A DNA stretch of 28,389 bases from a virus, in the IMG/VR virus record IMGVR_UViG_3300047488_000113, positions 1 to 28,389 of that record. One strand, 5' to 3'. Numbering within the stretch: position 1 is the stretch's first letter; each line of letters opens with the position of its first letter. The position numbers and the translations under genes are program-made. The notes beneath the pieces were generated by a model that was given only the letters and a program-made list of their open reading frames with translations, was not told the origin of the DNA and made no database searches. Positions 8,501 to 27,829 of the stretch are shown piece after piece.

Positions 8501-9688
8501 CACTTTGACAAACGGTTTGGCTTTGTTATAAATGTTTTCAGCTTTTAATAACAGCTGTGAATCGGTAAGCCCAGCCAAGTCTTGATGAGAACTCTTGATG
8601 TCTCTTAGCGCATCGTTCATTGACGCAGCAAGGCTGGTGTTAAGAGAAAGCATGGCAGGATTTCTGTTGAAAGTTTTAATTTCCGGGCCACTTTCAACCG
8701 CCCAACGCAACAGCTCTGGGTATTTAACATCCGCACCAAGCTCATTCCTTAATAAATTTTTATCAATCCTTGACATGGCAAGGTTTGGCAACTCATCAGC
8801 CGTTGCCACTTTCATTATGCTCTGGCCTTCTGGAGTCACGGCGTTGTTGTATCTGCTATTAAACATCCCTCCTAATCCACGACTAAGTACCCCGGCTTTT
8901 TCTCCAGTTGCCTTAACTATATCGCCAATCACTGGCAAACTTTTGGCGTAGCTGTACGCCCCGCTTGCAGCATCACCAACGCTTGCTGCTGCGTTGGCAA
9001 GCTTTTTGCCAGCCTCTCCGGTCAGCGCCCACCTATCTTTCATAAAAGGGATCTTTGCTCCAATTGGCCCACCCAATGGTTGGTTTAAAAACTGAGAAGC
9101 TATTTCAGCAGGGTCTTTTATTCCAGCCTCAGTCAGGTTTTTGTAAACATTGCCATTGTCCAGCCATTTTAATTCGTCTAGATTTTGTAAACCTTTGGTG
9201 GCTTGAATGACATTCTTTGCAGGATTGTAACCATACTTTGAAAGTTTTGCCCCGGCTTTGGTTAAAGCCGAACCGCCAAGCGTAAGGTAAGTTGTTGGAT
9301 CTAGTAGTATCTCCGTACCTATACCGCCCAAGGTGGACATAAGGCCGTCATCAGAACCGCCAAAAAACTGCTTGTTTAATTGCTCACCTGACACTGCGTT
9401 TTCAGGTTTGGTTAATCCAGCCATATCAGAAAAGGGGATGATTGACAAAGCCTCCTCAGGCTTACCGCCAAGTATCCCCCTTACGGCTCTTGCTCCACTG
9501 TATTTGTCAAGGGTGCTACCCACCAACGCCAAACCTGACAATGCGTTTGCTCCAAGATTTCTAAGCGCAGAACCTTCGTCCTCCTGAGGTATAAGAGTCT
9601 TATACTCAGGAGTCGTGCCGTTCATGCGGTCACGCCTCCGCTTGTCTGGATCGTCATCGTCAAAGAATGAGTTGGTGAATATACCCAT
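5510..9688 (-). CDS. Giant internal virion / ejection-type protein (1392 aa)
   Basis: The last and largest gene of the late operon. The N-terminal 100 residues mix Gly/Ala/Leu-rich helices (Ala-Leu-Ser-Gly-Leu-Ala-Leu-Val, Arg-Ala-Val-Arg-Gly-Ile-Leu) with Ile-Pro-Phe-Ser-Asp and Asp-Pro-Thr-Thr-Tyr-Leu. The middle is long and helical. The C-terminal third has Ala-Pro-Gly-Phe-His-Gly-Arg-Asn-Leu (about 905) and Phe-Glu-Lys-Asn-Val with Ile-Pro-Phe-Tyr-Thr-Phe (about 1125), motifs I associate with very large polyvalent virion proteins of short-tailed phages. I see no nuclease, lysozyme or polymerase motif. Its ATG shares one base with the upstream stop (TAATG). By position and size it is probably injected with the DNA, like T7 gp16, but no homology to that protein is visible. 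Confidence 0.72.
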   Translation of the reverse strand: MGIFTNSFFDDDDPDKRRRDRMNGTTPEYKTLIPQEDEGSALRNLGANALSGLALVGSTLDKYSGARAVRGILGGKPEEALSIIPFSDMAGLTKPENAVSGEQLNKQFFGGSDDGLMSTLGGIGTEILLDPTTYLTLGGSALTKAGAKLSKYGYNPAKNVIQATKGLQNLDELKWLDNGNVYKNLTEAGIKDPAEIASQFLNQPLGGPIGAKIPFMKDRWALTGEAGKKLANAAASVGDAASGAYSYAKSLPVIGDIVKATGEKAGVLSRGLGGMFNSRYNNAVTPEGQSIMKVATADELPNLAMSRIDKNLLRNELGADVKYPELLRWAVESGPEIKTFNRNPAMLSLNTSLAASMNDALRDIKSSHQDLAGLTDSQLLLKAENIYNKAKPFVKVSDETTGIGMIARPSYAAKQSNALTSADSLRYSLGGSGTYALDDVVHMGDGSEIIKPYFPRYANPVSNGRLTAPARIVDASAATEAALSTERTLKGLPQGATDIERMAKDPEITGLYTTSNPRTVAADIDKSAEKIALNYLKFPDAATYARSKNDLYEIKKMFGDNAIDDLKQNRLGVLSKDTYDIIKDANAVTKEIARQEGAKVGLTADDWLQRYTPSNIIIKDALKDPARYNIPKYFSGYADPRVDLLIDPALNLRSSKKLSNASDQLISALPEINPTTRSQILAADNAANIAETMAKQSVAHLPAGVTMPAGKSLTSALDVPKGAPFYGHILDSLESRILASNTGATKTKAVFDELLNTGLKNTDVQGTTTFGNALKSTGINADRSIASYADRYYDTNRFADVATNPLPATVRAEIQAHADDLLVNRRQSLLDDFEELGNLSPTDKQLQRYANQLAFKKVFSDLRVPQSTVNNINAEVISFKLPKPLGPIMKMFDEYTNLTKGGLTIIAPGFHGRNLISGLTTNIASGSAGTRPWEVVNNAYQADKAASGGVIEGITNLPLFKQINSERAKNGLGLYDDVAATKRFNELLHEYGVISPHTTSDLVVEPAQLAEKIAKQIPGEVPVRSASSLAKGFWDVAKPNAATGNLETNFKNLLPMVVENGQLRSNMDNFAPFTWGRDVNQKIEGANRGGAFLGFLKQGYTPEQAARMVNESHVDYSALTSFEKNVMKRAIPFYTFTKNMAPFVVRDITEHPGGLMAQYAKTAGRMRSQDENTALLPTHLGSSMLYDTTELNQMLGGVKPEGTRTFFTGLDLPVDVVAQYASNPFSQNQAFRGLESILGATNPLFKGPLELATNRQFFGHRNLDDLYSPTGSRILDQLLMNSPLSRIASMGKTLVDERKDPLTKALNLTLGGRFTDVDTQKWMNLRAKELIKEQLTGTNGIGTFEKIYARPDKINELNREQIELLRLQRNMENNALLYKKKHPELYKKPISQ

Positions 9689-13671: not shown

Positions 13672-14490
13672 TTATAGACCTTTGCCAAGTAGACCAAGCA
13701 GAGCGCTGTTGCCTTGCTGAGTGCTTGATTTTAAATCTGCCAGCGTACCAATCCTTGAATTTAAAAGCTTGTTTGAATCCAATGCGTATTGCTGGTTATT
13801 TTGTTTTGTGTCAGTGTAATTTTTCTGAGCCGTGCCTTCCTGCATGGTTCTTGACAGGCCAGCCTGAGAGTCCATAAGACCTGAAAGAAGCGGACTGTCG
13901 GATGAATACCCTTGATCTTGATATTTTTTAGCAAGATTATCAGAAGCTCTTTGCAATGATCTTGAATAGGTATTGCCAGCTACATTGTTCATGTTGGCTA
14001 TTTGACTTCCTGAGTGCATCTGATCAGCAAGCCCAAGAGATGATCTTGTGACAGGCTTGTCTCCACCAAGGGCGTTGTACATGGCGTAGTTTTCGCCTGA
14101 GTCACTTATTGCCTGAAGTATCTTGGGGTTTATCTCGTTGTACTTGTCCTCCTTAAATTGAGGATCAAGCATTTTGCTTCTGGAATTAATACCAGCAATA
14201 GCAGCAGACTGTTGCGATCTGATGGCTGATATCTGAGCTTGCGTAGCAGCGTCAAGCTGAGCTTGTGCAGCTGCTGCCTCGGCTTTGATTTTGGCTATGT
14301 TCTGAGATTCAATGTAATTTTTGTTTTGCTGTTGATAAGAAAAATCTTTTGCTTGCTTTTGGTTGTTAAGTTCCCAGTTTTGTTTGTTAATTTTATAAGC
14401 TTGAGCAGCAGCAGCTGCCCTTCGATCTTGCTCAGCTTGCCAAGCTTGCATTAAATAATTGTTTAAAGAGCTTGCGTTGTTTTTTCCCAT
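13672..14490 (-). CDS. Ala/Gln-rich helical virion protein, paralogue of its neighbour (272 aa)
   Basis: Residues 20-105 are Ala/Gln/Lys-rich and probably one long helix or coiled coil. The remainder has Pro-Val-Thr-Arg-Ser-Ser-Leu-Gly-Leu (about 145-153) and Ser-Asp-Ser-Pro-Leu-Leu-Ser-Gly-Leu (about 198-206). The same two landmarks with similar spacing occur in the upstream protein, so the two look like a tandem duplication. AAGGA before the ATG supports the start; the stop is ten bases before the 1112-residue gene's start. In short-tailed phages, helical Ala/Gln-rich proteins at this point are often ejected proteins that build a trans-envelope channel; that is inference here. Confidence 0.76.
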   Translation of the reverse strand: MGKNNASSLNNYLMQAWQAEQDRRAAAAAQAYKINKQNWELNNQKQAKDFSYQQQNKNYIESQNIAKIKAEAAAAQAQLDAATQAQISAIRSQQSAAIAGINSRSKMLDPQFKEDKYNEINPKILQAISDSGENYAMYNALGGDKPVTRSSLGLADQMHSGSQIANMNNVAGNTYSRSLQRASDNLAKKYQDQGYSSDSPLLSGLMDSQAGLSRTMQEGTAQKNYTDTKQNNQQYALDSNKLLNSRIGTLADLKSSTQQGNSALLGLLGKGL

Positions 14491-15793: not shown

Positions 15794-16108
15794 TTATTCA
15801 ATGGAATAATCCGGGCAACCAAAGCATGAATGAAGGCTATCAGAATTAGGGCCAATGGTACACTTGCCATGAATTTCACATTCGTGAACAAATTTAAATG
15901 GACAGTTGCAATTCCTGCGCTCTGTCACTTTGCCAAGATAAAAGCACGGACTTCTAGGCTTGTATTCTTTACCCATAGCTTCTTGAATTTCCAGCGAGTT
16001 TGGATGTTGTTTGTCATATATTGCTTTCATATGTGGGTAATCTGCATACACTGCACATATTGGGCAAGTAGTAGGGGTCATTGGAACATGTCTGCATGGG
16101 GTAGCCAC
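15794..16108 (-). CDS. Small cysteine-motif protein (104 aa)
   Basis: Ten Cys in 104 residues: 5, 15, 18, 55, 67, 69, 77, 83, 95 and 98, with His80. Cys15-x-x-Cys18 and Cys95-x-x-Cys98 suggest metal binding. The block Cys55-Phe-Tyr-Leu-Gly ... Cys67-Asn-Cys69 ... Cys77-x-x-His-Gly-x-Cys83-Thr ... Cys95-x-x-Cys98-Pro-Asp resembles, from memory, a short Cys motif frequent in Planctomycetes and environmental phage contigs whose function I do not know. The start is GTG at 16108, overlapping the stop of the 979-residue gene by one base (TAGTG), so translation is probably by re-initiation. Zinc or iron-sulphur binding is a reasonable inference. Confidence 0.7.
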   Translation of the reverse strand: MATPCRHVPMTPTTCPICAVYADYPHMKAIYDKQHPNSLEIQEAMGKEYKPRSPCFYLGKVTERRNCNCPFKFVHECEIHGKCTIGPNSDSLHSCFGCPDYSIE

Positions 16109-19047
16109 TACTCTTTGTACCCTCCGGCAACATCTGGCGTGTCAGTTTGCGGATCAGAAAATTCGTGCAATATAAAATCAGCCAACGACTTTTTGCTTGA
16201 AGCCATTGGTGTGTTTTCAAATGTGGTGTTATAGCAATTAAAAAAAACATTTGGCAAATTCTTGGATGACTGTTTCATGGCTAGGCAATTAGTGCGCTGC
16301 AAAGAACTGGCGCTTGTGCTACTGTTTATCTCCGCATGGTCTTTGCCACTGTCCGGGTCACTAGGGAAATGATGATATGAAACTGTGTTGTACCTGCTGG
16401 CGTATTTTTCCAGCAAAGCAAGATCCAAGGCAACCGATGTCATGTCTACGCCCCAGTCGTAATTGTCTTTAATTGGGTTATTGGAACCGTCCAGTTTCTG
16501 CGTCAGCTTCATGTAATCTACGCCAGCGTATGGATGACACTTAATGTGAAAATAAAAATACCTTCCACCTTGGAAATCTTCAGGTTTTACAAATTTGTTA
16601 TATTGACTAGTTTTATCTGACAGCTCCTCTTTGATTCTTCGCATCCCTGAAACTTTTGTTTCTTTTATATCCTTTGCGTATTTTACTATTTCGTCTATGG
16701 TCGCTATGTTACTTGTGCTTAACTTTGACACACCTGATCCGGGAGCGCCATCTGCTTTAATGTGCGCACATCCTGCTGGTTCAATCATCGGGACAACGCA
16801 GTAATACTGAAATCTACCATGATATTCTCGTCCGTTCCAATACCCTTCTTCTAGCTGAATGCAACCCTTTTCGAGATTGTTTAAATCTTTGCTACGAATT
16901 TTTTTTGTGTAACCTTTAGGATATTCGATGCACCTACCATGATTAAACATGTATCCGTTGTCGCCAACTTTATCTGCATCATGTTCCATAAGATTATTAG
17001 GGTCATAAGTTAATCTAGTGTCGGCATAAGCTGCAGGTATTTGAAAATAAGTGTATGACGGCACTGGTTCCTTGCTAGTTTTTTGTACGCTGCAAAAATG
17101 CAAATTAAAATGAGTGTTAAGCTTCCATGTGTAATCCGATATTGGGGCGTACGAATAAGAATAAATATCTGGGCTTGCAGTTTGAAATGAAAATTTGTCT
17201 GACCTAAGGACACCATAGGAAACATTTCTCCCGTTGTAAGCTATGTAGCTATGCCCAAACGATGTTGGATTCGGAAACAGGCTGACATCCAGCATTGCCT
17301 CTCTGGTTCGTGATGTGTACGGACAAAATGTTGTTCGTTTACCAGTGATCGGGTCAAGCAATCCAAACACATAACTGTACAATGTTCCGTCAACCCACCA
17401 TTGCGAATCTTCTTGAACCTGCGGGGAAAATCCAAAGTTGGTTATCGACATGGCCACAGTCAAAACAGATTCGCCCGTGGAAGGGTTTGTGCTTCTGGCC
17501 AAAGTGCATGGTATTTTTACATGCGTCATTTCTATTTGATCGTTTTGATTATTTTCATCCACAGATGGGCTGGCACAAGCCGGAAAAAATCCTTCGCATG
17601 GGAACGAACATATCTCCCTGTCGTATCCTGATTCATAATTCCTTATAATCACAGGAGCGATTGACGCAACATAGCTGTGTATCCCAATGTCGCCAGTTAT
17701 AGGCCACTCGCAATTAATTTTGTCCCTTCCTTCGGTTGATCCTATAAGCTGTTCTGGCCTGTTGTTCATGCACTCATATCTGTTTGGAGCGCACAGCATG
17801 ATGTCAAGTTTCTCGTAAACTGCAATGCACTCAGGAGAAAGAAACCTAGCAAGTATTTTTGGGTTTTCAAATGACCTGCTTGCCAAAACATTGTAAGGCT
17901 TGGTCAACGAACCATGAATGGAACAATGCTGTTTTGGAAGGTAGTAGATAGTTGGAGAATCATCCAAATCCAAAGGATAATAAAACGCACCAGCCGAGGA
18001 AAAGGTTGAGCTTATCGGATCAGGCGAATTGCTTTTTATGGCAGGGTTGTAAAGATCTACCCCTGCACCGTTTGCTGCCTGACCTGTCCACTTGTATTTT
18101 TCGCCAAGTCTGGTTATATCCTCAAGGATCATTGGACTGCCAAGCTTTGGTGGCGCAGCCGTTGTCTTTGCTTTTGGCTCCTCATAAGAAAAATTTATTT
18201 TGATATCCTTTGCGTCATAAATACCTTTACCGGGGAACTTAGAGTTGGATGTAACCTTAAAATTTCCTTGCCCGGCAGATTTGACAGCTTCCTTTACATT
18301 AAATGTCTTGTCAGCCAGCAGCTCAGGCTTTACAGCAAATGTAAAATTATTAAGAAGCGCACCACCCTTGTAATCAAAACAAAAACTTTTTGACCCGGTG
18401 TAGACCAAGAATGACGGAATACTAATTATTTCAATCAATGCGGTGGATATAACCGGCCATTTAGCGCAAGCAGCGTAAGACTTGTCGTCCATAGGGCTGA
18501 CGCAAACTTGATATTCTTTGACATTGTATCCGCTTATGTCGATGTCTATTTCGGTTAACGCATCTGAGCCTTCGCATTTTCTGACGCTAAGGTCAGCGTA
18601 GCATTTGTTTTGAACAAACTTGAAAGGAGCAGACAACACATCGGCGCCAAGGCCACTGAATCTAACAGTATAAGTGACAGCGAGCGTATCAACATCGTCA
18701 GCTTTTGGCAAATATTTCCAGCTGTATCCCATCCCAAAAGTTACCACCCCTGAAACAAACGCAGCGGTAACCGAAGTGACAACGCTGTTGTCCGGGAGTA
18801 TGAACCTTCCACCACCATCCATGGATATAGTGCAGTCTCCTGAATAGTCCGTGTCCAACTGTCCAAACATATTTAAAGCGTGAATTTCCCACCCATAAAA
18901 CATGGTGCCGTCTATGTCAGGGTCAGGATCAGGATAGCTTTTTTGATACAAGACTTTGTGCGTGTCGCCTTCAGGCTGTAAAGGATCTATAATTACAGGC
19001 AAAACCCCGTATGTAGCTATATACATATGGTCTGCTGGGTAAGGCAT
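16108..19047 (-). CDS. Cys-rich 979-aa putative tail/virion protein
   Basis: A large protein coded directly after the tail hub (TAATG overlap at 19047-19049), so almost certainly a virion or host-contact protein. I recognise no domain. It has about 24 cysteines spread over the whole length, many aromatic residues, and short segments such as Cys-Ser-Phe-Pro-Cys and Phe-Pro-Ala-Cys-Ala near the middle. The N-terminal 130 residues look beta-rich (Ser-Met-Asp-Gly-Gly-Gly-Arg-Phe, then Ser-Val-Val-Thr-Ser-Val-Thr). There is no signal peptide, no collagen-like repeat and no known depolymerase motif. It could be a tail fibre or spike, a hub extension or a capsid-surface protein. The Cys content is unusual for a protein assembled in a reducing cytoplasm. 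Confidence 0.72.
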   Translation of the reverse strand: MPYPADHMYIATYGVLPVIIDPLQPEGDTHKVLYQKSYPDPDPDIDGTMFYGWEIHALNMFGQLDTDYSGDCTISMDGGGRFILPDNSVVTSVTAAFVSGVVTFGMGYSWKYLPKADDVDTLAVTYTVRFSGLGADVLSAPFKFVQNKCYADLSVRKCEGSDALTEIDIDISGYNVKEYQVCVSPMDDKSYAACAKWPVISTALIEIISIPSFLVYTGSKSFCFDYKGGALLNNFTFAVKPELLADKTFNVKEAVKSAGQGNFKVTSNSKFPGKGIYDAKDIKINFSYEEPKAKTTAAPPKLGSPMILEDITRLGEKYKWTGQAANGAGVDLYNPAIKSNSPDPISSTFSSAGAFYYPLDLDDSPTIYYLPKQHCSIHGSLTKPYNVLASRSFENPKILARFLSPECIAVYEKLDIMLCAPNRYECMNNRPEQLIGSTEGRDKINCEWPITGDIGIHSYVASIAPVIIRNYESGYDREICSFPCEGFFPACASPSVDENNQNDQIEMTHVKIPCTLARSTNPSTGESVLTVAMSITNFGFSPQVQEDSQWWVDGTLYSYVFGLLDPITGKRTTFCPYTSRTREAMLDVSLFPNPTSFGHSYIAYNGRNVSYGVLRSDKFSFQTASPDIYSYSYAPISDYTWKLNTHFNLHFCSVQKTSKEPVPSYTYFQIPAAYADTRLTYDPNNLMEHDADKVGDNGYMFNHGRCIEYPKGYTKKIRSKDLNNLEKGCIQLEEGYWNGREYHGRFQYYCVVPMIEPAGCAHIKADGAPGSGVSKLSTSNIATIDEIVKYAKDIKETKVSGMRRIKEELSDKTSQYNKFVKPEDFQGGRYFYFHIKCHPYAGVDYMKLTQKLDGSNNPIKDNYDWGVDMTSVALDLALLEKYASRYNTVSYHHFPSDPDSGKDHAEINSSTSASSLQRTNCLAMKQSSKNLPNVFFNCYNTTFENTPMASSKKSLADFILHEFSDPQTDTPDVAGGYKE

Positions 19048-21317
19048 TACTGATCCTTTGCGTCAACTGGTGCGTGAAACACCCCTTCGAGCCTGATTCC
19101 ATATATGGTTTCTTCGCTGTCAGTTGTAAGCCCGTCAACCTCTATGGAAAGATACTTGACGCCGTCAACTGATGACTCACGGTGAGTGTCAAACCTCTGC
19201 CGTAATGATCCAAGCTCTTTGTTGAAATTTCCAACAAGACTTAGGCCATCATCAGAGACATAAAACTCTTGATCAGACTGCTTCCTGTAAGGTTTCTTGA
19301 ATGACAACTTCTGATTGCTCCTATCTCTGTAGAATTTCACATTAAACTGTGACGACAAACTAGTAGGCTGAAAATCTACTTCCAAGTTTCTGACTATATT
19401 TTTGTCGTTGCCGTCCATCCTGTAATTACCTGTTCTAAATACCCATGGCATGGATCCAAGCGTGTATTCAGCAGCGCCGATTCTCTCAATGATTGGACGG
19501 TCAAGATAAATTCTAGAGCCAACAGCTTTCCTTACAATTCTGTAAATAGATTTTCCTGATGCTGTCCTGATACCAACAGGATTGTTGACGCACTCTGCTT
19601 TTTCAAAATTTACAAGGCTATCTTCTATCCACATATGAGAGCTTGCCGTCACTGTTCCGCTTACAGAACTTAAAGACGAATCAAGTCCGTCAAGGTTTCC
19701 AAAAGGATAACGCAATACCCTATTGTTGTTGGTTCCAAGAAAACAGGTTGATGACGAAACATTAAAATCTTGGCAAGACGACATGATTGGAGTGGAAAAT
19801 TCTTCGACCCACCAAGCGTTAGTTTTATAGTTGTAGCAAAGTGCGTGTCTTGGGTACCTTCCTGCCCCCATTACCACAAACCATCTGATGGTGCTTTTAG
19901 AAGAGATATGAATCGCATGAAAAAATTCTGAATACGCCCAATTAATTGAATAGTATTTGTTTGTTCCTTCAAAGATTGAGTTGATTTGATAACTAAGCGC
20001 TTCTTCTTTTCCTTCGGAGTATGCGTATATCCCAAGACGATCAAGAGTAATTGCAGCAGATCCACGGGTGACAATACACTTTTGATTGACTGATCCTCTG
20101 GTGTATGACGCAGGATAAATGCTTCCATCGGTGTCAGGCGAATTACCGAATGTCAACCTAAACAATTTGTTCTTGCAGAATATCAACAGAAAAGTGTCGA
20201 GGTTTGCAAGCCCAACTATCTCGTCCTGTTCCTCTTGAAGCACAAGTCCACTTGTAGTCCGTATTTTTTTTGGCTGTCCAACTTCAGAGTAATACAAAGC
20301 TTTCTTTTCAAGGTATGGCGGTGATATGGTGTATGCGCTGTACGAATTTGTTTTGCCAACAAATGGCGAAGCTAAGGTTATAAGCTGGTTTCCTTCGTCA
20401 ACCTCCGCAATGATACCCGGTTTGATAGAGTCGTTTGTAAAAAACCTTCGCCCTACAAATGTTTTTTTCCAGTCGGTTCCAATCCCATAAACAAAAGCGT
20501 TCCCGTTTGACACCTTAGCCGAACCAACGGAATAAGATACGGATCCAGCGTAAAAAACCCTGTCATTTACTGAGGCAGCGTAAGGCTTCCAGTCAGGGAT
20601 CTCCGGAAAACCATTGGCTATCTGATTCATGTTATCATCGTAAAGAGGAACATCCTCGTTGTCGCTCAAAACCTCATCGGTAAGTGTCGAGTAAAACACC
20701 GTAGATGTAAGGTTGGTTGTCTCCACATCCACAAAAAAAACTTCCGTCTGGCCGTTGGTGTTCCTGAGTATCTGTCGTTTGACAATCCTAGGATCAGTAG
20801 GAACCTGCACATTCGTGTAAACAATTCGTTGCACCCCGGCGTACCATGTGCCACCTCCGGTGTACGAATACCCTGAATCAGTGGACGATCCAACCAATAT
20901 AAAAAAATCGCTGTCAATGACATCAACTGTAAAAATCCCATCAGCGTCAGGTATGCCACCAACCCCGCTAATGCTAACCGTCTGGCCATTTGCCAAGCCA
21001 TGAGCCGTACTTTCAATCACAATCGGTGTAGTTGACGCTGCGTCTTTGATGATGCCTGATTTGGAGCTTACAGTCGTGGACAGGCTTAATGGGCTAAGGT
21101 TTGAAGGACTGCCATCAGCGTCCACAAACCTTACATAACAGTAATACTTGCCTGTCAAAAGTCCAACTCCTGCACCTTCAAGTGCAGGTCTGGCGGTTAC
21201 TGATTCAACGCTGGCTGTAGCAGCCTGAGATTTAAGGCCATCCCAGCACAGAGCTTTATCTATCCCGTTGAGGATGTACAGCTCGCCAGTAGATGTTTTT
21301 AAAAATGTGTCTGGCAT
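19047..21317 (-). CDS. Podovirus-type tail hub/nozzle protein (P22 gp10 / T7 gp12-like), apparently lacking its N-terminal arm
   Basis: A 756-residue beta protein. Residues 41-80 hold Gly-Lys-Tyr-Tyr-Cys-Tyr-Val-Arg-Phe-Val-Asp-Ala-Asp-Gly-Ser-Pro-Ser-Asn-Leu-Ser, a fibronectin-like strand set often seen in these proteins. About residues 338-455 carry the propeller signature: Leu-Tyr-Tyr-Ser-Glu-Val-Gly-Gln-Pro, then Gly-Leu-Ala-Asn-Leu-Asp-Thr-Phe-Leu-Leu-Ile-Phe, and Asp-Arg-Leu-Gly-Ile-Tyr-Ala-Tyr. Tyr-Lys-Thr-Asn-Ala-Trp-Trp-Val follows. Such proteins form the tail nozzle below the adaptor. Unusually it starts close to Leu-Tyr-Ile-Leu-Asn-Gly, without the usual N-terminal stretch ending in Arg-x-Gly; that stretch seems to be the 59-residue ORF at 22749-22928. 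The start lies one base after the preceding stop. Confidence 0.75.
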   Translation of the reverse strand: MPDTFLKTSTGELYILNGIDKALCWDGLKSQAATASVESVTARPALEGAGVGLLTGKYYCYVRFVDADGSPSNLSPLSLSTTVSSKSGIIKDAASTTPIVIESTAHGLANGQTVSISGVGGIPDADGIFTVDVIDSDFFILVGSSTDSGYSYTGGGTWYAGVQRIVYTNVQVPTDPRIVKRQILRNTNGQTEVFFVDVETTNLTSTVFYSTLTDEVLSDNEDVPLYDDNMNQIANGFPEIPDWKPYAASVNDRVFYAGSVSYSVGSAKVSNGNAFVYGIGTDWKKTFVGRRFFTNDSIKPGIIAEVDEGNQLITLASPFVGKTNSYSAYTISPPYLEKKALYYSEVGQPKKIRTTSGLVLQEEQDEIVGLANLDTFLLIFCKNKLFRLTFGNSPDTDGSIYPASYTRGSVNQKCIVTRGSAAITLDRLGIYAYSEGKEEALSYQINSIFEGTNKYYSINWAYSEFFHAIHISSKSTIRWFVVMGAGRYPRHALCYNYKTNAWWVEEFSTPIMSSCQDFNVSSSTCFLGTNNNRVLRYPFGNLDGLDSSLSSVSGTVTASSHMWIEDSLVNFEKAECVNNPVGIRTASGKSIYRIVRKAVGSRIYLDRPIIERIGAAEYTLGSMPWVFRTGNYRMDGNDKNIVRNLEVDFQPTSLSSQFNVKFYRDRSNQKLSFKKPYRKQSDQEFYVSDDGLSLVGNFNKELGSLRQRFDTHRESSVDGVKYLSIEVDGLTTDSEETIYGIRLEGVFHAPVDAKDQ

Positions 21318-21318
21318 G

Positions 21319-21537
21319 CTACCTTCCTGTCCTGCCTACATAAAGGTAATGTACTTGAGGATAACTGCTGTTTGCGTCACCATCATCGACAGTAGTCAAA
21401 TAAAAGCTTGACCCTACACTGACATTGCTAACAAACGAATCAGCGCCAGCAACGGAAAATGTGCTGCCAGCAAAACACTGGGTAAAAGCGCTAGGCCCAA
21501 CCGTGAAATCAGATCCAATTGCTAGGTTGTTTTCCAT
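21319..21537 (-). CDS. Small beta-rich virion-associated protein (72 aa)
   Basis: Unrecognised 72-residue protein rich in Ser, Gly, Val and Phe, with alternating hydrophobic residues that suggest beta strands and a C-terminal Tyr-Leu-Tyr-Val-Gly-Arg-Thr-Gly-Arg. It begins eight bases after the previous stop, with TAGGAAA before the ATG, and ends one base before the hub start. The tight position between two structural genes makes it probably real and co-translated. A decoration or fibre-tip peptide is possible; nothing specific can be said. Confidence 0.62.
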   Translation of the reverse strand: MENNLAIGSDFTVGPSAFTQCFAGSTFSVAGADSFVSNVSVGSSFYLTTVDDGDANSSYPQVHYLYVGRTGR

Positions 21538-21544
21538 TGTTTTC

Positions 21545-22045
21545 CTAGGTCAAGCTTGTCTGGTAAGTGATGCTGATGGTCTGGCCAGTTATCAGGTTTT
21601 GATCGCTGACAAAAACCCCAGTTGCCCACAAGGATCCTGAGGTTGCACCTTTCGCAGAAGCCGTTGACAGGAACGCACCCTTGATCGACATGGATGTGGA
21701 AGCCGTAAACACTATAGACGCACTGCTTGTGACAGTGGTTGTTCCGGCAGATGACACAGGGGAACCGGGGTTCCACTGGCGCCGGGTGGATTCATTGTAA
21801 TCAGTCGCTTCAACCCAGCCACTGTGACTGGCTGCAGTATCCAAGGTTGACAAAGCGCTGAAAGATGTTGCGCTTATCAACCCTATGTACCAGTTTGCAT
21901 TTTGTGTTCCTGACCTGAACACATTGTCAAGCGCAAGAGTCCTGCCCTGATCTGTGGTGCCATTGGAGAATGTTTCCTCCCAAGCCACAGAGCCATCAGG
22001 GTTTTTGCAAACCATTTTGAACAATCCTTTGCTAACGCTTTTCAT
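21545..22045 (-). CDS. Phage beta-sandwich virion protein (fibre or decoration type, 166 aa)
   Basis: Residues 52-57 Trp-Tyr-Ile-Gly-Leu-Ile, 69-79 with Asp-Thr-Ala-Ala-Ser-His-Ser-Gly-Trp, Arg-Arg-x-Trp (88-91), and a C-terminal part with Gly-Ala-Phe-Leu, Gly-Ser-Leu-Trp-Ala-Thr-Gly-Val-Phe and a final Ile-Thr-Tyr-Gln form a pattern I have seen in many small phage structural proteins; I cannot give a secure family name. It is a soluble all-beta protein, probably on the virion surface. The ATG lies within the last 14 bases of the upstream gene. It is one of four small genes that separate the presumed hub arm from the hub body. Confidence 0.68.
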   Translation of the reverse strand: MKSVSKGLFKMVCKNPDGSVAWEETFSNGTTDQGRTLALDNVFRSGTQNANWYIGLISATSFSALSTLDTAASHSGWVEATDYNESTRRQWNPGSPVSSAGTTTVTSSASIVFTASTSMSIKGAFLSTASAKGATSGSLWATGVFVSDQNLITGQTISITYQTSLT

Positions 22046-22454
22046 TTAACCTACCCCTTATGATGGATCCAGAACTTAGTTGAGACACCACAAAATTTGC
22101 GTTTTCAAATTTGACGGCAATCATTGACACAGGATTGCCGTGACTGTCGCCAGTATCATAAACATCAAAGTAAATTGCATAAATGTAAGAATCAGGGTTT
22201 TTGTCGTAGGCTATTATCGCCGTGTATTTCCCGGCAGACAAATTTGACTTGATAAAATACTCAGCGCCAAAGTGATACGATTCAGTAATGTTACCTATCT
22301 TTGGCGCAGTGAATTGCTTTTCCAACAAACCAATCGAATTAAACAAAAGCACAATCGGAGCGTTGTCCGGGGAGATTTTATCCCCATTGCTTGCAGAGGT
22401 TATTATCGGAATAAAAACCTCGTCACCTTTTTGGTAATAACCTAGGTAGCTCAT
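22032..22454 (-). CDS. Small Ig-like/beta-sandwich virion protein (140 aa)
   Basis: Opens with Gly-Tyr-Tyr-Gln-Lys-Gly-Asp-Glu-Val-Phe-Ile-Pro and contains Leu-Ser-Ala-Gly-Lys-Tyr-Thr-Ala-Ile-Ile-Ala-Tyr (about 72-83), the edge-strand pattern of phage beta-sandwich proteins. The upstream gene has the same layout (Gly-Phe-Val-Asn-Asn-Gly-Ser at its start and Ala-Gly-Lys-Phe-Tyr-Tyr-Ile-Val-Val-Thr-Tyr near its end), so the pair may be diverged copies. The start overlaps the upstream stop as ATGA (22451-22454). No enzymatic motif. Likely a minor structural or fibre-base protein. Confidence 0.68.
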   Translation of the reverse strand: MSYLGYYQKGDEVFIPIITSASNGDKISPDNAPIVLLFNSIGLLEKQFTAPKIGNITESYHFGAEYFIKSNLSAGKYTAIIAYDKNPDSYIYAIYFDVYDTGDSHGNPVSMIAVKFENANFVVSQLSSGSIIRGRLNEKR

Positions 22455-22744
22455 ACCACCCCAAAGGTAAAGTTGGATATCTTGCTATGACCATTGACCG
22501 TGTAAGTAACCACAATGTAATAAAACTTTCCTGCCTCATAAAGATTTACTGACGACACAGGGATGGAAGCCTTGTACACGCCTTGCACAATTAAAGTCGA
22601 TGATCCTGAGGAGTTTGGCATAGTCTCACCTAAAGGGCCATAGACTACATAGGTTGATGATGCGACAACAGGCTCGCCATAATCACCAGTCACCGGGTAA
22701 ATAGCGGTAAATGTTGAGCCGTTGTTAACAAATCCCATAAACAT
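22451..22744 (-). CDS. Small Ig-like/beta-sandwich virion protein (97 aa)
   Basis: A short all-beta protein with Gly-Ser-Thr-Phe-Thr-Ala-Ile-Tyr-Pro-Val and a final hairpin Ala-Gly-Lys-Phe-Tyr-Tyr-Ile-Val-Val-Thr-Tyr. The ATG at 22744 is preferred over a TTG at 22762 because GAGGAG (22752-22757) is seven bases upstream of it. That site is formed by the last two Glu codons of the preceding 59-residue ORF, so the two are coupled. It resembles the next gene downstream. Probably a virion surface or fibre component; the function is inferred from fold and place only. Confidence 0.68.
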   Translation of the reverse strand: MFMGFVNNGSTFTAIYPVTGDYGEPVVASSTYVVYGPLGETMPNSSGSSTLIVQGVYKASIPVSSVNLYEAGKFYYIVVTYTVNGHSKISNFTFGVV

Positions 22745-22748
22745 ATTA

Positions 22749-22928
22749 TTACTCCTCGTCAAACACCACTTTTTTGTATCCGTTGCGAACCTGTATTTGG
22801 TTCTTTTTTATGCACACAACATTGCGCTGGTCAACCATTGCCCCGGCTGGCAGCAAGTCAGGGTTCACGGAATCTATGACACCCATGAAATTTTCAATCA
22901 GCGTTATGTCCTTGAAATTCTCAGCCAA
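22749..22928 (-). CDS. Short ORF resembling the N-terminal arm of a tail-hub protein (59 aa)
   Basis: A 59-residue ORF starting at TTG (22926-22928). An in-frame TAG (22938-22940) lies four codons upstream, so TTG is the only usual start before an internal ATG at residue 15, and AGGAGG (22934-22939) is five bases before it. The sequence holds Glu-Asn-Phe-Met-Gly-Val (12-17), Asn-Pro-Asp-Leu-Leu-Pro-Ala-Gly-Ala-Met-Val-Asp-Gln-Arg-Asn-Val-Val (22-38) and Val-Arg-Asn-Gly-Tyr-Lys (47-52). This is the usual opening of P22 gp10 / T7 gp12-like hub proteins. The hub body at 19047-21317 lacks such an opening, so this looks like its separately coded arm. It overlaps the adaptor gene by 8 bases. Confidence 0.7.
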   Translation of the reverse strand: MAENFKDITLIENFMGVIDSVNPDLLPAGAMVDQRNVVCIKKNQIQVRNGYKKVVFDEE

Positions 22929-24162
22929 TGTTGCCTCCTAACGGGAACGATGCAAGCCTTGGCCTGATGTATGTATCCGGGCTTGCGTTCCTTCTCTGGA
23001 TGATCTTGCTGTCAGCAGCCTGTGCGTTCCTGACTGAAGCCAAATAAAGCTGATAGAGATCCTGTGCGTTGGATTTACTTCGTAGCAAGCTAACTTGGTA
23101 CTCGCATCCACGCAGGAATGGGTCAAGCATCACGCCCTGCTCCACATCTATGGGATCGCTGATGGCGTACTTGCGAGCGCTGAATGTCGTATACAAAGGC
23201 TCATCGACAACCAGCTGTGTTGAGCTAATGACGCCAACGATCTGGCGCTCGTATTCGGCTATGTTGTCGCCGTCCAATCCTGTTGGGAAATCGGAGCTGT
23301 CAGGACTGATCCTTATGATTGATCCGGTAAGTGAGCTGGTGAAGTTTGCGCCTGTCGCCGTGATTGTGGTTGTTGGGCCATTGCTTGTGTCGGCTGCAAC
23401 CGTTCCAGCCGTGTACAATTCGATGGCTATTGGCCTTGCGCCTCTTTGATACAGGTAATCAAAAGACCTGTCTGTCGCAGGGTAAGGGTACACCCGGAAA
23501 CTAAGTCTACCTTGAAGCGAGGAATGTCCAGTAATCGTGTACATGTATGGATCGGCTGAATAGTTGTTGCCGTTTTCCACGCTGCTTAGCCATTCCCTAG
23601 GATGAACATAAGTAAGGTTTGTAAAGTTGCTTTTATTCAAGCCTTCGTCAGCAGACACGAAGTCAATAGGCAAAAGGTATTCGTCACAGAAAAGCCGATA
23701 GGTTGTGCCAGCAGGAAGATCTTGCCTAGGGCTTTGAGCTGAATCAAGAACAGCAAGGGTTGATGTCACAAGGTTGGCAATCTTGTAATTAGCATCTCCA
23801 AGCCTAATTGTTCCGTCAGAAGCCCAGCTTGGGAAAGTACCACCAGTCAAGGTCAGCATCCTTTCATACGCACCACCAGTGTAATCGTAAGTAACAGTGC
23901 CTTGTTGATACACGCCATTGGTGTTGATTCGACCATGGTTGTAATAATAAGTCCAGCGGTGAATCCTTGGAAAAGTCCTGAGCGTATTTTGAATAGCTCG
24001 TCTTACTGTCCTTAAAGCTTCTGTTCCAACATCAGCTCCAAGATAATCCAGCAAATGATTTATCGCATCTTGATAGGTGAACGCTATGCCACGAATGACA
24101 AACTGCTTTAGCGGTGCTGACGGAAGCGGTCTTGGATTGATATTGATGTTCGTGTTTGACAT
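22921..24162 (-). CDS. Head-tail adaptor protein (P22 gp4 / T7 gp11-like)
   Basis: A 413-residue adaptor expected to sit between portal and tail hub. The N-terminal helical part (30-75) has Asp-Ala-Ile-Asn-His-Leu-Leu, Arg-Arg-Ala-Ile and Phe-Pro-Arg-Ile-His-Arg-Trp-Thr-Tyr-Tyr-Tyr. A beta domain follows with Gly-Thr-Val-Thr-Tyr, Tyr-Glu-Arg-Met-Leu-Thr-Leu and Ser-Trp-Ala-Ser-Asp-Gly-Thr-Ile-Arg (88-120). Leu-Pro-Ile-Asp-Phe (164-168) and a Tyr-Gln-Arg-Gly-Ala-Arg-Pro motif come later. This architecture is common in short-tailed phage adaptors with inserted beta domains. The start abuts the stop of the upstream gene. Its position before the hub arm and hub supports the call; I recognise the pattern but cannot confirm a family number. 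Confidence 0.72.
   Translation of the reverse strand: MSNTNININPRPLPSAPLKQFVIRGIAFTYQDAINHLLDYLGADVGTEALRTVRRAIQNTLRTFPRIHRWTYYYNHGRINTNGVYQQGTVTYDYTGGAYERMLTLTGGTFPSWASDGTIRLGDANYKIANLVTSTLAVLDSAQSPRQDLPAGTTYRLFCDEYLLPIDFVSADEGLNKSNFTNLTYVHPREWLSSVENGNNYSADPYMYTITGHSSLQGRLSFRVYPYPATDRSFDYLYQRGARPIAIELYTAGTVAADTSNGPTTTITATGANFTSSLTGSIIRISPDSSDFPTGLDGDNIAEYERQIVGVISSTQLVVDEPLYTTFSARKYAISDPIDVEQGVMLDPFLRGCEYQVSLLRSKSNAQDLYQLYLASVRNAQAADSKIIQRRNASPDTYIRPRLASFPLGGNIG
22934..22939 (-). promoter_or_regulatory. Ribosome-binding site deciding a TTG start
   Basis: AGGAGG lies five bases before the TTG at 22926-22928, inside the 3' end of the adaptor gene. With the in-frame stop just upstream it fixes the start of the 59-residue ORF. 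Confidence 0.72.
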
Positions 24163-24822
24163 TTATGACACCGTTATGGTTGTAGGGTTGTTAGCCAAAT
24201 AAGCTTCGTCAAGAACCCATAGATAATAAGTCCCAACATCCAACAGGAATACAGCTTGACCAAAATTGTTTGTCCTGCCACTGGCAATCACATTGTCGCC
24301 AGCAAGATCAGTTGAAACCCATACGGCAGCAGCCACAACCGGCACATCTCCGGCTGTGCTATGAACAGTAACAGTGTGACTTTTTGCTCCAGCTCCAGCT
24401 GGATTTGTGAACGGCATGTCAAGGTGAACCAATACTTCTTCTTCAAGCGTACCGTTAAAGCTGACACTAACCAAAACATACAGTGCGCCAGAAAGAAAGG
24501 CTTGATTAGGAACATCGACCCGGTACAACCCACCGGCAACAGATTGATTTAATTCGATAAAGCCACCTGACACCCAAGAAGCAGCCGGTGACGCCAAGGA
24601 GACAAGGTTAAAACTTACAGGGTTAGCGCCTTCTCTAGTGTAACTAGCTGAAGCTCCCGGAGAATCAAATGACAGCCCCTTTTTAGACCTGCCAGTCAAG
24701 CCACGAATTTTCATCACCAACGATTTGCTGCTTGAATTAGGAGTGATTCTGTAAGCCATCGGATCAGCCTCATCGTCTATAATAGTGGCCAGACTGCTGG
24801 TGTTCAGAAACGGAAAACTCAT
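24163..24822 (-). CDS. Beta-sandwich adhesin-like virion protein (219 aa)
   Basis: Two beta domains. Residues 1-135 include Leu-Thr-Gly-Arg-Ser-Lys-Lys-Gly-Leu-Ser-Phe, Trp-Val-Ser-Gly-Gly-Phe-Ile-Glu-Leu (83-92) and Gly-Leu-Tyr-Arg-Val-Asp-Val-Pro (97-104). Residues 145-219 look like a carboxypeptidase-regulatory/Ig-type module (Ala-Val-Trp-Val-Ser-Thr-Asp, Thr-Asn-Asn-Phe-Gly-Gln-Ala-Val-Phe, Gly-Thr-Tyr-Tyr-Leu-Trp-Val). Such proteins are often head fibres or surface modules that bind cells or glycans. The ribosome-binding site is weak, with the upstream stop 13 bases before the start. It directly precedes the adaptor. No enzymatic motif is visible. Confidence 0.7.
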   Translation of the reverse strand: MSFPFLNTSSLATIIDDEADPMAYRITPNSSSKSLVMKIRGLTGRSKKGLSFDSPGASASYTREGANPVSFNLVSLASPAASWVSGGFIELNQSVAGGLYRVDVPNQAFLSGALYVLVSVSFNGTLEEEVLVHLDMPFTNPAGAGAKSHTVTVHSTAGDVPVVAAAVWVSTDLAGDNVIASGRTNNFGQAVFLLDVGTYYLWVLDEAYLANNPTTITVS

Positions 24823-26109: not shown

Positions 26110-27102
26110 TTACATTCGCCAGCTTACATTTTGCGTAGGAAAACCGTTAAACTGCGAATACGCAAAACACTCGTCCCTGCATATCCAGTCCATGTCCGAA
26201 TCGGTAATCCAGAACCCGCCGGGAGGCTCGCCGTAGCTTCCGCATGGTTCACCGTGAACCTTGGTACCCCAGCTATTAAGGACATAATAGATCCAGCCAA
26301 GCTCAGGGTGCTTAACCACGCCAATTACGCACATTTGATGGCCCCAAGAATCAGTGCGTTTTGCCAACCTGACAGGAGGAGTTCCAACAATTTTTGGAAC
26401 CAGCGGGCTAGTGCCAAACATGCTGGCAATTGTCAACGGATAATAATTAAGTAATGCTTGGCGAGCTTCAGTGGAATTTTTCATTTGAGCTGCGCTTTTA
26501 ATAAGGTGTTTTCTACTTAGAGAAAGCCATTTTTCTTTGATGGCATCGCCGTCAGACCACTCCATTTCAGCGTGAGATCCCCAAGTAAGCCCATCAGACG
26601 ACACTGGCTGAGGAAGTTCTTGAATGTCGGCTTCGACAATTCCATCCACTCTCATAGCCTCAGCAATGGCGCTTCCAAACGACCCTTCTCCACGCCCGTG
26701 CATGCCAGCTATAGCTCTAGACCTTCCATATGGAAGCAGCCAGAATGGCGTCTTTACTAATTCAGCATCGCCAAGCCTGATTGACTCTACAGCTTGAAGG
26801 TACCACATTGCTTGCCCAAGACCGTTGCCAACGCACGAACCAGTTTGCTGATAAAAAGTCTCAAAATGCTGGCCTTTATTAGCTTTTTTAGAAAAGTCCC
26901 AGAGAAAAGCTTGCTCTCTAGCATCGTCATTTTCACCAGCCAGCTTAAATTCAACAAAATTAGCCTTAGCCATTTTGTCTATTTCTTTTTGTTTTTCATT
27001 CATATCCTCGGGAGCAATTCTTCCAAAATTCCAATTAGCTTCTTCTTGACCAAGAAATGGAATTTTACCGCCAACAGATTTAAAAAAAGATGCTTCGTTC
27101 AT
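26110..27102 (-). CDS. Papain-like (C1 family) cysteine peptidase
   Basis: A 330-residue protein with a papain-type active site. Gln85/Gln86 precede Thr-Gly-Ser-Cys90-Val-Gly, the expected nucleophile; Ser-Trp-Gly-His255 is the catalytic His; Leu-Asn276-Ser-Trp-Gly is the Asn of the triad with the family's NSWG signature. Residues 1-75 look like a short pro-region or linker, without a signal peptide. The C-terminal Gly/Trp/Cys-rich part completes the fold. The ATG at 27102 follows GAGG and is preferred over TTG at 27120. Uses could be virion maturation, an envelope-degrading virion enzyme, or host lysis. Its neighbours encode a secreted and a membrane protein, which favours an envelope target, but this is inference. 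Confidence 0.85.
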   Translation of the reverse strand: MNEASFFKSVGGKIPFLGQEEANWNFGRIAPEDMNEKQKEIDKMAKANFVEFKLAGENDDAREQAFLWDFSKKANKGQHFETFYQQTGSCVGNGLGQAMWYLQAVESIRLGDAELVKTPFWLLPYGRSRAIAGMHGRGEGSFGSAIAEAMRVDGIVEADIQELPQPVSSDGLTWGSHAEMEWSDGDAIKEKWLSLSRKHLIKSAAQMKNSTEARQALLNYYPLTIASMFGTSPLVPKIVGTPPVRLAKRTDSWGHQMCVIGVVKHPELGWIYYVLNSWGTKVHGEPCGSYGEPPGGFWITDSDMDWICRDECFAYSQFNGFPTQNVSWRM

Positions 27103-27109
27103 ACTTACC

Positions 27110-27829
27110 TCATTTAGCAAGTTTAGCTAAAGTTTCAGATATCATTTTAAATTCTCGGTAAAACAAGTCCCGATCATTTTTATTTATAACTTTTTCTGTT
27201 GATGTTGGGGCCAACGCATTGAGATAACTTCCAATAAAATCCCTGACATCCTGTATGTCATCAGGTGTCAAGGAAGCAAGCGAAAGCTTTATGCCATATT
27301 CGTACAAATCTTTGATGGTTTTGTACGATTCGTCCTGAGATGCCAAAGAAAGTTTTCCGTACACAGACGACAAAAGCTTTACGCAATCAATTTTCTTTGA
27401 TTCTTGGTTTTTATCAATGATTGATTTTAGCTTGGATTCAAAAGCTGAAACAGGGTCAACCGGAGTTGGAGGCACAGGCGCTGGCTGCTGGCCAGCTACA
27501 GTAACCAAGCACAGTTGAGGGTCTGTGGGAATGTCATTCATCGAAGTGTAGACAAACACACGGTAATCACCGGGTATTGTGGCACAAAATATGGCCCACA
27601 AACCACTGTCTGACACCACAAGGTCATTCTCGTCAGACGCCGAAAACCATTTAACTACTTTTCCATTGGTCTGCACTGACAATTTAACCAGTCTTCCCGG
27701 TTTAGCTTGAACCTTGTCGGCTATTTTTATATATGGTTCGTCTTTTACAACGGTTTTTTTTGAATCTTGAGCGTTGCAAGCAATACAAAACAAACACAAA
27801 AAAACAAATCCACTGAAAAACCTAATCAT
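27110..27829 (-). CDS. Secreted Ig-like protein with Pro linker (239 aa)
   Basis: Residues 1-20 form a signal peptide: Met-Ile-Arg, then a Phe/Leu/Cys-rich core ending Cys15-Ile-Ala-Cys18-Asn-Ala. Cys18 could be lipidated, but the position at -3 is Cys, so a lipobox is doubtful. Residues 35-112 are an Ig-like beta domain with Lys-Pro-Gly-Arg-Leu-Val-Lys-Leu (43-50), Trp-Ala-Ile-Phe (78-81) and Gly-Asp-Tyr-Arg-Val-Phe-Val-Tyr (87-94). A Pro-rich linker (115-126) leads to a helical domain (127-239). From memory, this layout is very common in Planctomycetes and phages linked to them. The start overlaps the preceding stop as ATGA (27826-27829). The function is unknown; the protein should be exported into the host envelope. 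Confidence 0.8.
   Translation of the reverse strand: MIRFFSGFVFLCLFCIACNAQDSKKTVVKDEPYIKIADKVQAKPGRLVKLSVQTNGKVVKWFSASDENDLVVSDSGLWAIFCATIPGDYRVFVYTSMNDIPTDPQLCLVTVAGQQPAPVPPTPVDPVSAFESKLKSIIDKNQESKKIDCVKLLSSVYGKLSLASQDESYKTIKDLYEYGIKLSLASLTPDDIQDVRDFIGSYLNALAPTSTEKVINKNDRDLFYREFKMISETLAKLAK

What the first reader, a model, noticed from the sequence alone, without database searches (positions are those of the whole stretch)
19047..22928. Tail-hub gene appears split: N-terminal arm coded 1.4 kb upstream of the body
The 59-residue TTG-started ORF at 22749-22928 looks like the standard opening of P22 gp10 / T7 gp12-like hub proteins (a Pro-Asp-x-Leu-Pro...Arg-Asn-Val-Val stretch ending near Arg-Asn-Gly-Tyr). 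The hub body at 19047-21317 begins where that stretch normally ends. Four small genes (21319-22744) lie between the two. Either the arm became a separate protein that rejoins by assembly, or a cassette was inserted and both parts were kept in frame with good ribosome-binding sites.
Basis: partly seen in the sequence, partly recalled or inferred. Interest (0 to 1): 0.62.

Follow-up and report, generated by a model that had tools for sequence, protein, structure and literature searches.

The report
Phage tail hub split into two genes
In a small family of uncultured short-tailed phages the gene for the tail hub, normally one piece, is stably broken in two with four other genes in between; the two products probably come back together without a covalent link when the tail is built, which would be a natural split version of an essential virion part.

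Summary
A 59-codon ORF (22749-22928, minus strand, TTG start, good SD) lies directly after the adaptor-like gene, where a hub gene normally begins. It matches the N-terminal arm of undivided P22 gp10/T7 gp12-type hubs: best of 482 window ORFs (E=7.5e-5, next 3.6) and better than all 20,000 shuffles. The 756-residue ORF matches the propeller of the same hubs (E=6e-9) and has no arm. All five related IMG/VR contigs keep the same split, TTG start and four intervening genes, and the arm evolves under purifying selection. In 86 other loci the arm is part of the long hub ORF; the only stand-alone arms belong to this family. Two relatives exchanged a block that begins exactly at the adaptor stop codon and carries arm, four genes and body together. 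Correction: body and arm do not abut; roughly 40 residues (first propeller hairpin) of undivided hubs are found in neither. In T7 gp12 these N-terminal strands complete the platform barrel (PMC6702177), so the arm most likely joins the hub in trans; that step is inferred. New variant of a known kind.

The parts
22921..24162 (-). 413-aa adaptor-like protein (tail tubular A position); its stop codon is the recombination breakpoint in relatives
   Evidence: Position directly upstream of the hub arm; 84-85% identical in relatives; adaptor identity inferred from position and sequence pattern only, no family hit
22749..22928 (-). 59-aa hub N-terminal arm as a separate gene (TTG start, SD GGAGG, 8-nt overlap with the 413-aa gene)
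   Evidence: hmmsearch with undivided-hub N-termini E=7.5e-5 among 482 window ORFs, next best 3.6; hhalign 1.2e-5; none of 20,000 shuffles as high; conserved in 5 contigs
22451..22744 (-). 97-aa protein of unknown family, beta-rich by eye
   Evidence: 78-80% identical in relatives, same place
22032..22454 (-). 140-aa protein of unknown family, beta-rich by eye
   Evidence: 60-79% identical in relatives, same place
21545..22045 (-). 166-aa virion structural/fibre-type protein
   Evidence: phrog_8123 E=2e-16; profile hits solved 'Structural protein' 26la_U E=1.8e-13; weak Pfam Gp80 (GP4 fibre I), below cut-off
21319..21537 (-). 72-aa protein directly upstream of the body; least conserved of the set
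   Evidence: 51-69% identical in relatives; no significant match to the missing first hairpin of hubs
19047..21317 (-). 756-aa hub body (propeller plus C-terminal part), without arm
   Evidence: Profiles of undivided hubs E=6e-9 and 6e-6; hhalign 2.4e-7; phrog_3287 2e-4; blastp to L005 hub 6e-6 starting at body residue 12
16108..19047 (-). 979-aa downstream gene; the second end of the exchanged block lies inside it in relatives (about window 18040)
   Evidence: Change point at L009 14122 (support 14115-14136)

Best explanation
The locus encodes a tail hub (P22 gp10/T7 gp12 type) as two polypeptides. The hub gene was broken between its N-terminal arm and its propeller by a block of four small genes, at least one of which is a virion structural (fibre-type) protein. 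The arm kept its place and start site right behind the adaptor gene and ends at its own stop codon; the body acquired its own start and SD. [quoted passage not shown] Shown: the two-gene layout, its conservation, homology of both pieces to one undivided protein family, and inheritance of arm, four genes and body as one block. Inferred: translation of both pieces, the docking in trans, insertion as the origin, and that the four genes encode hub-bound parts.
For: Arm matches hub N-termini; body matches the rest of the same hubs and has no arm; the hub family is a tail nozzle by profile (9k09 Tail tubular protein B, E=3e-11) and by model of an undivided relative (SU10, Pa223, VP1, GP4, P22 gp10, crAss001 muzzle, T7 among the matches). 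Same split in five contigs from five datasets. Arm under purifying selection with fixed TTG and SD. One arm per record. Arm inside a long hub ORF in 86 other loci. Recombinant block in L009 versus L007/L008 starts at the adaptor stop codon (9243, support 9237-9244): upstream 94-95% identical, arm 76%, four genes 59-76%, body 69%, so the arm is inherited with the body and not with the adaptor. [quoted passage not shown] PMC9509320).
Against: No complex could be modelled: the body alone folded badly (mean pLDDT 31, four near sequences), and in the model of the undivided relative the arm itself is low-confidence. Arm homology rests on about 50 residues with moderate E-values. Roughly 40 residues of the first propeller hairpin of undivided hubs appear in neither piece. 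No proteomics. Only three distinct lineages carry the split.
Confidence: 0.68

Rival explanations
1. The hub is in more than two pieces: the missing first propeller hairpin is supplied by one of the four genes, most plausibly the 72-aa protein directly in front of the body, so arm, 72-aa protein and body together make one hub subunit.
For: Arm plus body lack about 40 or more residues found in all undivided hubs compared; the 72-aa gene sits exactly where that piece would be encoded and moves in the same block.
Against: No significant similarity of the 72-aa protein, or of the other three, to that region; the region is poorly conserved, so the test is weak.
Confidence: 0.13
2. The arm derives from a hub N-terminus but no longer joins the hub: it acts as an adaptor cofactor or assembly factor, and the body manages without it.
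For: Its start overlaps the adaptor stop codon, so it may be made in step with the adaptor.
Against: In the recombinant relatives the arm was exchanged together with the body and away from an almost unchanged adaptor.
Confidence: 0.12
3. The 59-aa ORF is an unrelated small protein and its similarity to hub arms is chance.
For: Short query, moderate E-values, no significant PHROG or Pfam hit of its own.
Against: Best of 482 window ORFs, beaten by none of 20,000 shuffles and by no unrelated one among about 5,000 short ORFs (only its own orthologues); it lies exactly where hub genes begin; the body lacks an arm.
Confidence: 0.05
4. Arm and body are rejoined at RNA or protein level (intron, ribosomal bypass, trans-splicing), or the split is an assembly error.
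For: Both parts are kept.
Against: No Rfam match in 18000-24500; both parts have their own start, SD and stop; four conserved genes lie between them in six contigs.
Confidence: 0.02

Closest known systems
P22 gp10 / phage stabilization protein (TubeB), e.g. PDB 8eap; relatives in phages C75C1, Pony, CRP-13, API480
   Same: Arm at the N-terminus, propeller body, gene behind a tail adaptor-like gene (seen directly in CRP-13)
   Different: One undivided gene in all of these
T7 gp12 / SU10 gp17 nozzle
   Same: Seven-bladed propeller hub with a platform built from both chain ends (PMC6702177, PMC9509320)
   Different: Arm and body in one chain
Cyanophage A4 Tail tubular protein B (PDB 9k09)
   Same: Best solved sequence relative of the undivided-hub profile (E=3e-11), arm included
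   Different: One 1015-residue chain

Membership tests
P22 gp10/T7 gp12-type tail hub | Propeller body related to known hubs by sequence | tested here: met
   Body hit by undivided-hub profiles at E=6e-9 and 6e-6, hhalign 2.4e-7
P22 gp10/T7 gp12-type tail hub | N-terminal arm present in the protein set | tested here: met
   Present, but as a separate 59-aa ORF
P22 gp10/T7 gp12-type tail hub | Arm and body in one polypeptide (usual, not known to be essential) | tested here: not met
   Separate ORFs in the window and all five relatives
P22 gp10/T7 gp12-type tail hub | Seven-bladed propeller fold of this body | tested here: inconclusive
   Model of the body poor; undivided relative matches hubs
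P22 gp10/T7 gp12-type tail hub | Hexameric hub in the virion, bound to a 12-fold adaptor | not testable with these tools
   Needs virions or complex prediction
P22 gp10/T7 gp12-type tail hub | Gene order adaptor then hub | tested here: inconclusive
   Arm directly follows the 413-aa gene, but that gene's adaptor identity has no family hit

The most novel reading that the evidence does not exclude
A podovirus hub subunit made of three or more separately encoded chains (arm, 72-aa hairpin piece, body), with the other inserted genes encoding permanent hub parts such as fibres, so that one transcript order lays down platform, appendages and propeller.
Probability: 0.13. Interest if true: 0.75.

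Novelty: new variant of a known kind. Interest (0 to 1): 0.5.

Why it matters
[quoted passage not shown] The T7 authors suggested a circular permutation because the platform barrel takes three strands from the N-terminus (PMC6702177). A lineage that encodes those strands as a separate gene suggests that the connection between arm and propeller can be given up, gives a natural fragment-complementation system for a gate protein, and offers a direct test of whether the arm must be covalently linked. It also warns annotators: the 59-codon TTG ORF is easy to miss and the body is easily called an N-terminally truncated hub.

Tried and rejected
Direct tblastn of body, adaptor-like protein, arm, 166-aa protein, 979-aa protein and the 336-aa protein against 50,697 phage records: no match. 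Body in genome contigs: none. Further scans with alignments of body, arm and adaptor found only the same contigs. Body structure with four sequences: unusable. Undivided relative: good enough for the propeller, arm uncertain. Rfam introns: none. Hub profile on whole relatives with the genome search: nothing rang, without a positive control, so uninformative. Pairwise comparison of the four intervening proteins with each other and with the 219-aa protein: no detectable kinship. Idea that the 72-aa protein is the missing hairpin: no support by profile. Stand-alone arms elsewhere: none among about 5,000 short ORFs of all fetched loci except this family. Weak hits of the arm to phrog_21745 and phrog_20025 (E about 0.2) could mean other separate arms, but the members could not be inspected. 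Papers on a split hub or nozzle gene: none found in the searches made.

Full report
What is there. On the minus strand the window reads: 219-aa protein, 413-aa protein, 59-aa ORF (22928 to 22749), 97, 140, 166 and 72-aa proteins, 756-aa protein (21317 to 19047), 979-aa protein. The 59-aa ORF starts with TTG behind a strong SD (ttaggaggcaacaTTG), overlaps the stop codon of the 413-aa gene by 8 nt and ends in TAA a few bases before the next gene. The window is a 28,389-base virus record.

Conservation. Five other IMG/VR contigs carry the same region: one essentially identical (3300042112), two that are alike to each other (2199352005, 3300042526) and two more (3300013372, 3300024346). All have the genes in the same order; against the window, the four non-identical contigs have the arm at 69-71% identity, the body at 69-81% and the 413-aa protein at 84-85%. 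The TTG start, SD and overlap are unchanged. Arm substitutions lie mostly at third positions; dN is 0.16-0.22 with dS saturated or above 1. Each record has one arm. This is a real, maintained gene, and the layout is not an assembly error.

Homology. The body found one distant relative (L005, 27% identity) with a 907-aa undivided hub-like protein. From that protein I reached hubs of phages C75C1, Pony, CRP-13, API480 and two Manatee Spring phages, some annotated head closure or phage stabilization protein, and some 80 more loci. The compared ones start with an arm. A profile of 18 such N-termini, built without the window, scores the 59-aa ORF at E=7.5e-5 among 482 window ORFs; the next ORF is at 3.6. 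None of 20,000 shuffles and no unrelated short ORF of about 5,000 scores as high; the only ones that do are the orthologous arms. Profiles of whole undivided hubs pick out the body (E=6e-9 and 6e-6) and, second, the arm (weakly on its own in that search, 0.07 and 0.01), at separate non-overlapping positions (profile 13-60 against 180 onward). hhalign gives 1.2e-5 (arm) and 2.4e-7 (body). The undivided family hits PDB 9k09, Tail tubular protein B of cyanophage A4, at 3e-11, and the arm profile hits the start of the same chain at 0.003 (source named). A model of an undivided relative (mean pLDDT 61, pTM 0.42) matches hubs of Pa223, SU10, VP1, GP4, P22 (gp10), crAss001 and T7.

How unusual. In 86 loci the arm lies in an ORF of 400 aa or more; the only stand-alone arms are those of this family. 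Most of these loci come from one hub family, so they are not 86 independent cases.

A recombination test. L009 and L007/L008 are 94-95% identical through the 413-aa gene, then drop at one point: the change point is L009 position 9243 (support 9237-9244, or 9230-9244 for L008), while the 413-aa stop codon ends at 9242. Downstream, arm 76%, the four genes 59-76%, body 69%; identity recovers inside the 979-aa gene near 14122 (profile). So arm, four genes and body were exchanged as one block and the adaptor-like gene stayed. This ties the arm to the body.

What does not fit a clean cut. Undivided hubs have 60 or more residues between the arm's R-x-G-Y and the motif corresponding to LYILNGIDKALCWDG at body residue 13. 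Arm and body together have about 20. The first hairpin of the propeller, roughly 40 residues, is missing from both. None of the four intervening proteins matches it, though the region is too variable for a strong test. Either it was lost, or the body rebuilt it, or a third chain supplies it.

Mechanism. In T7 gp12 three strands of the platform barrel, which binds the adaptor, come from the 45-residue N-terminus, the rest from the C-terminus (PMC6702177). [quoted passage not shown] The arm here has the length and position of those strands. The simplest reading is that it completes the platform from outside. The 166-aa protein resembles a solved structural protein (26la, E=1.8e-13), so the inserted genes are likely tail parts. 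Docking and stoichiometry are not shown.

Verdict. Confirmed as a conserved two-gene hub; mechanism likely but inferred; a new variant of a well-known part.

Noticed in passing
L009 9243 to about 14122; window about 18040 to 22920: A whole tail block (arm to the first third of the 979-aa gene) has been exchanged between close relatives, with one end exactly at a stop codon.
   Followed up: yes
window body residues 100-157 and 261-342 (about 20847-21020 and 20292-20537): Two domains shared with other phage tail proteins sit inside the body: an E1_FCCH-like stretch (below Pfam cut-off; also in undivided hub L005) and one matching phrog_28473/24607 tail fibre families.
   Followed up: partly
PDB chain 26fb_K (398 aa), residues 11-53: A solved 'Structural protein' starts with an arm-like stretch (E 0.03) but showed no propeller match to the hub profile; 26la_U, with a neighbouring code, matches the 166-aa protein. 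Possibly one phage with an unusual hub.
   Followed up: no
window 22752-22928: Weak hits to phrog_21745 (143 aa) and phrog_20025 (72 aa), both short and of unknown function: possible other separate arms.
   Followed up: no
window 26110-27120 and 924-2069: By eye a papain-like cysteine protease gene next to the tail genes and a serine recombinase at the other end; no phage record matches the former.
   Followed up: no
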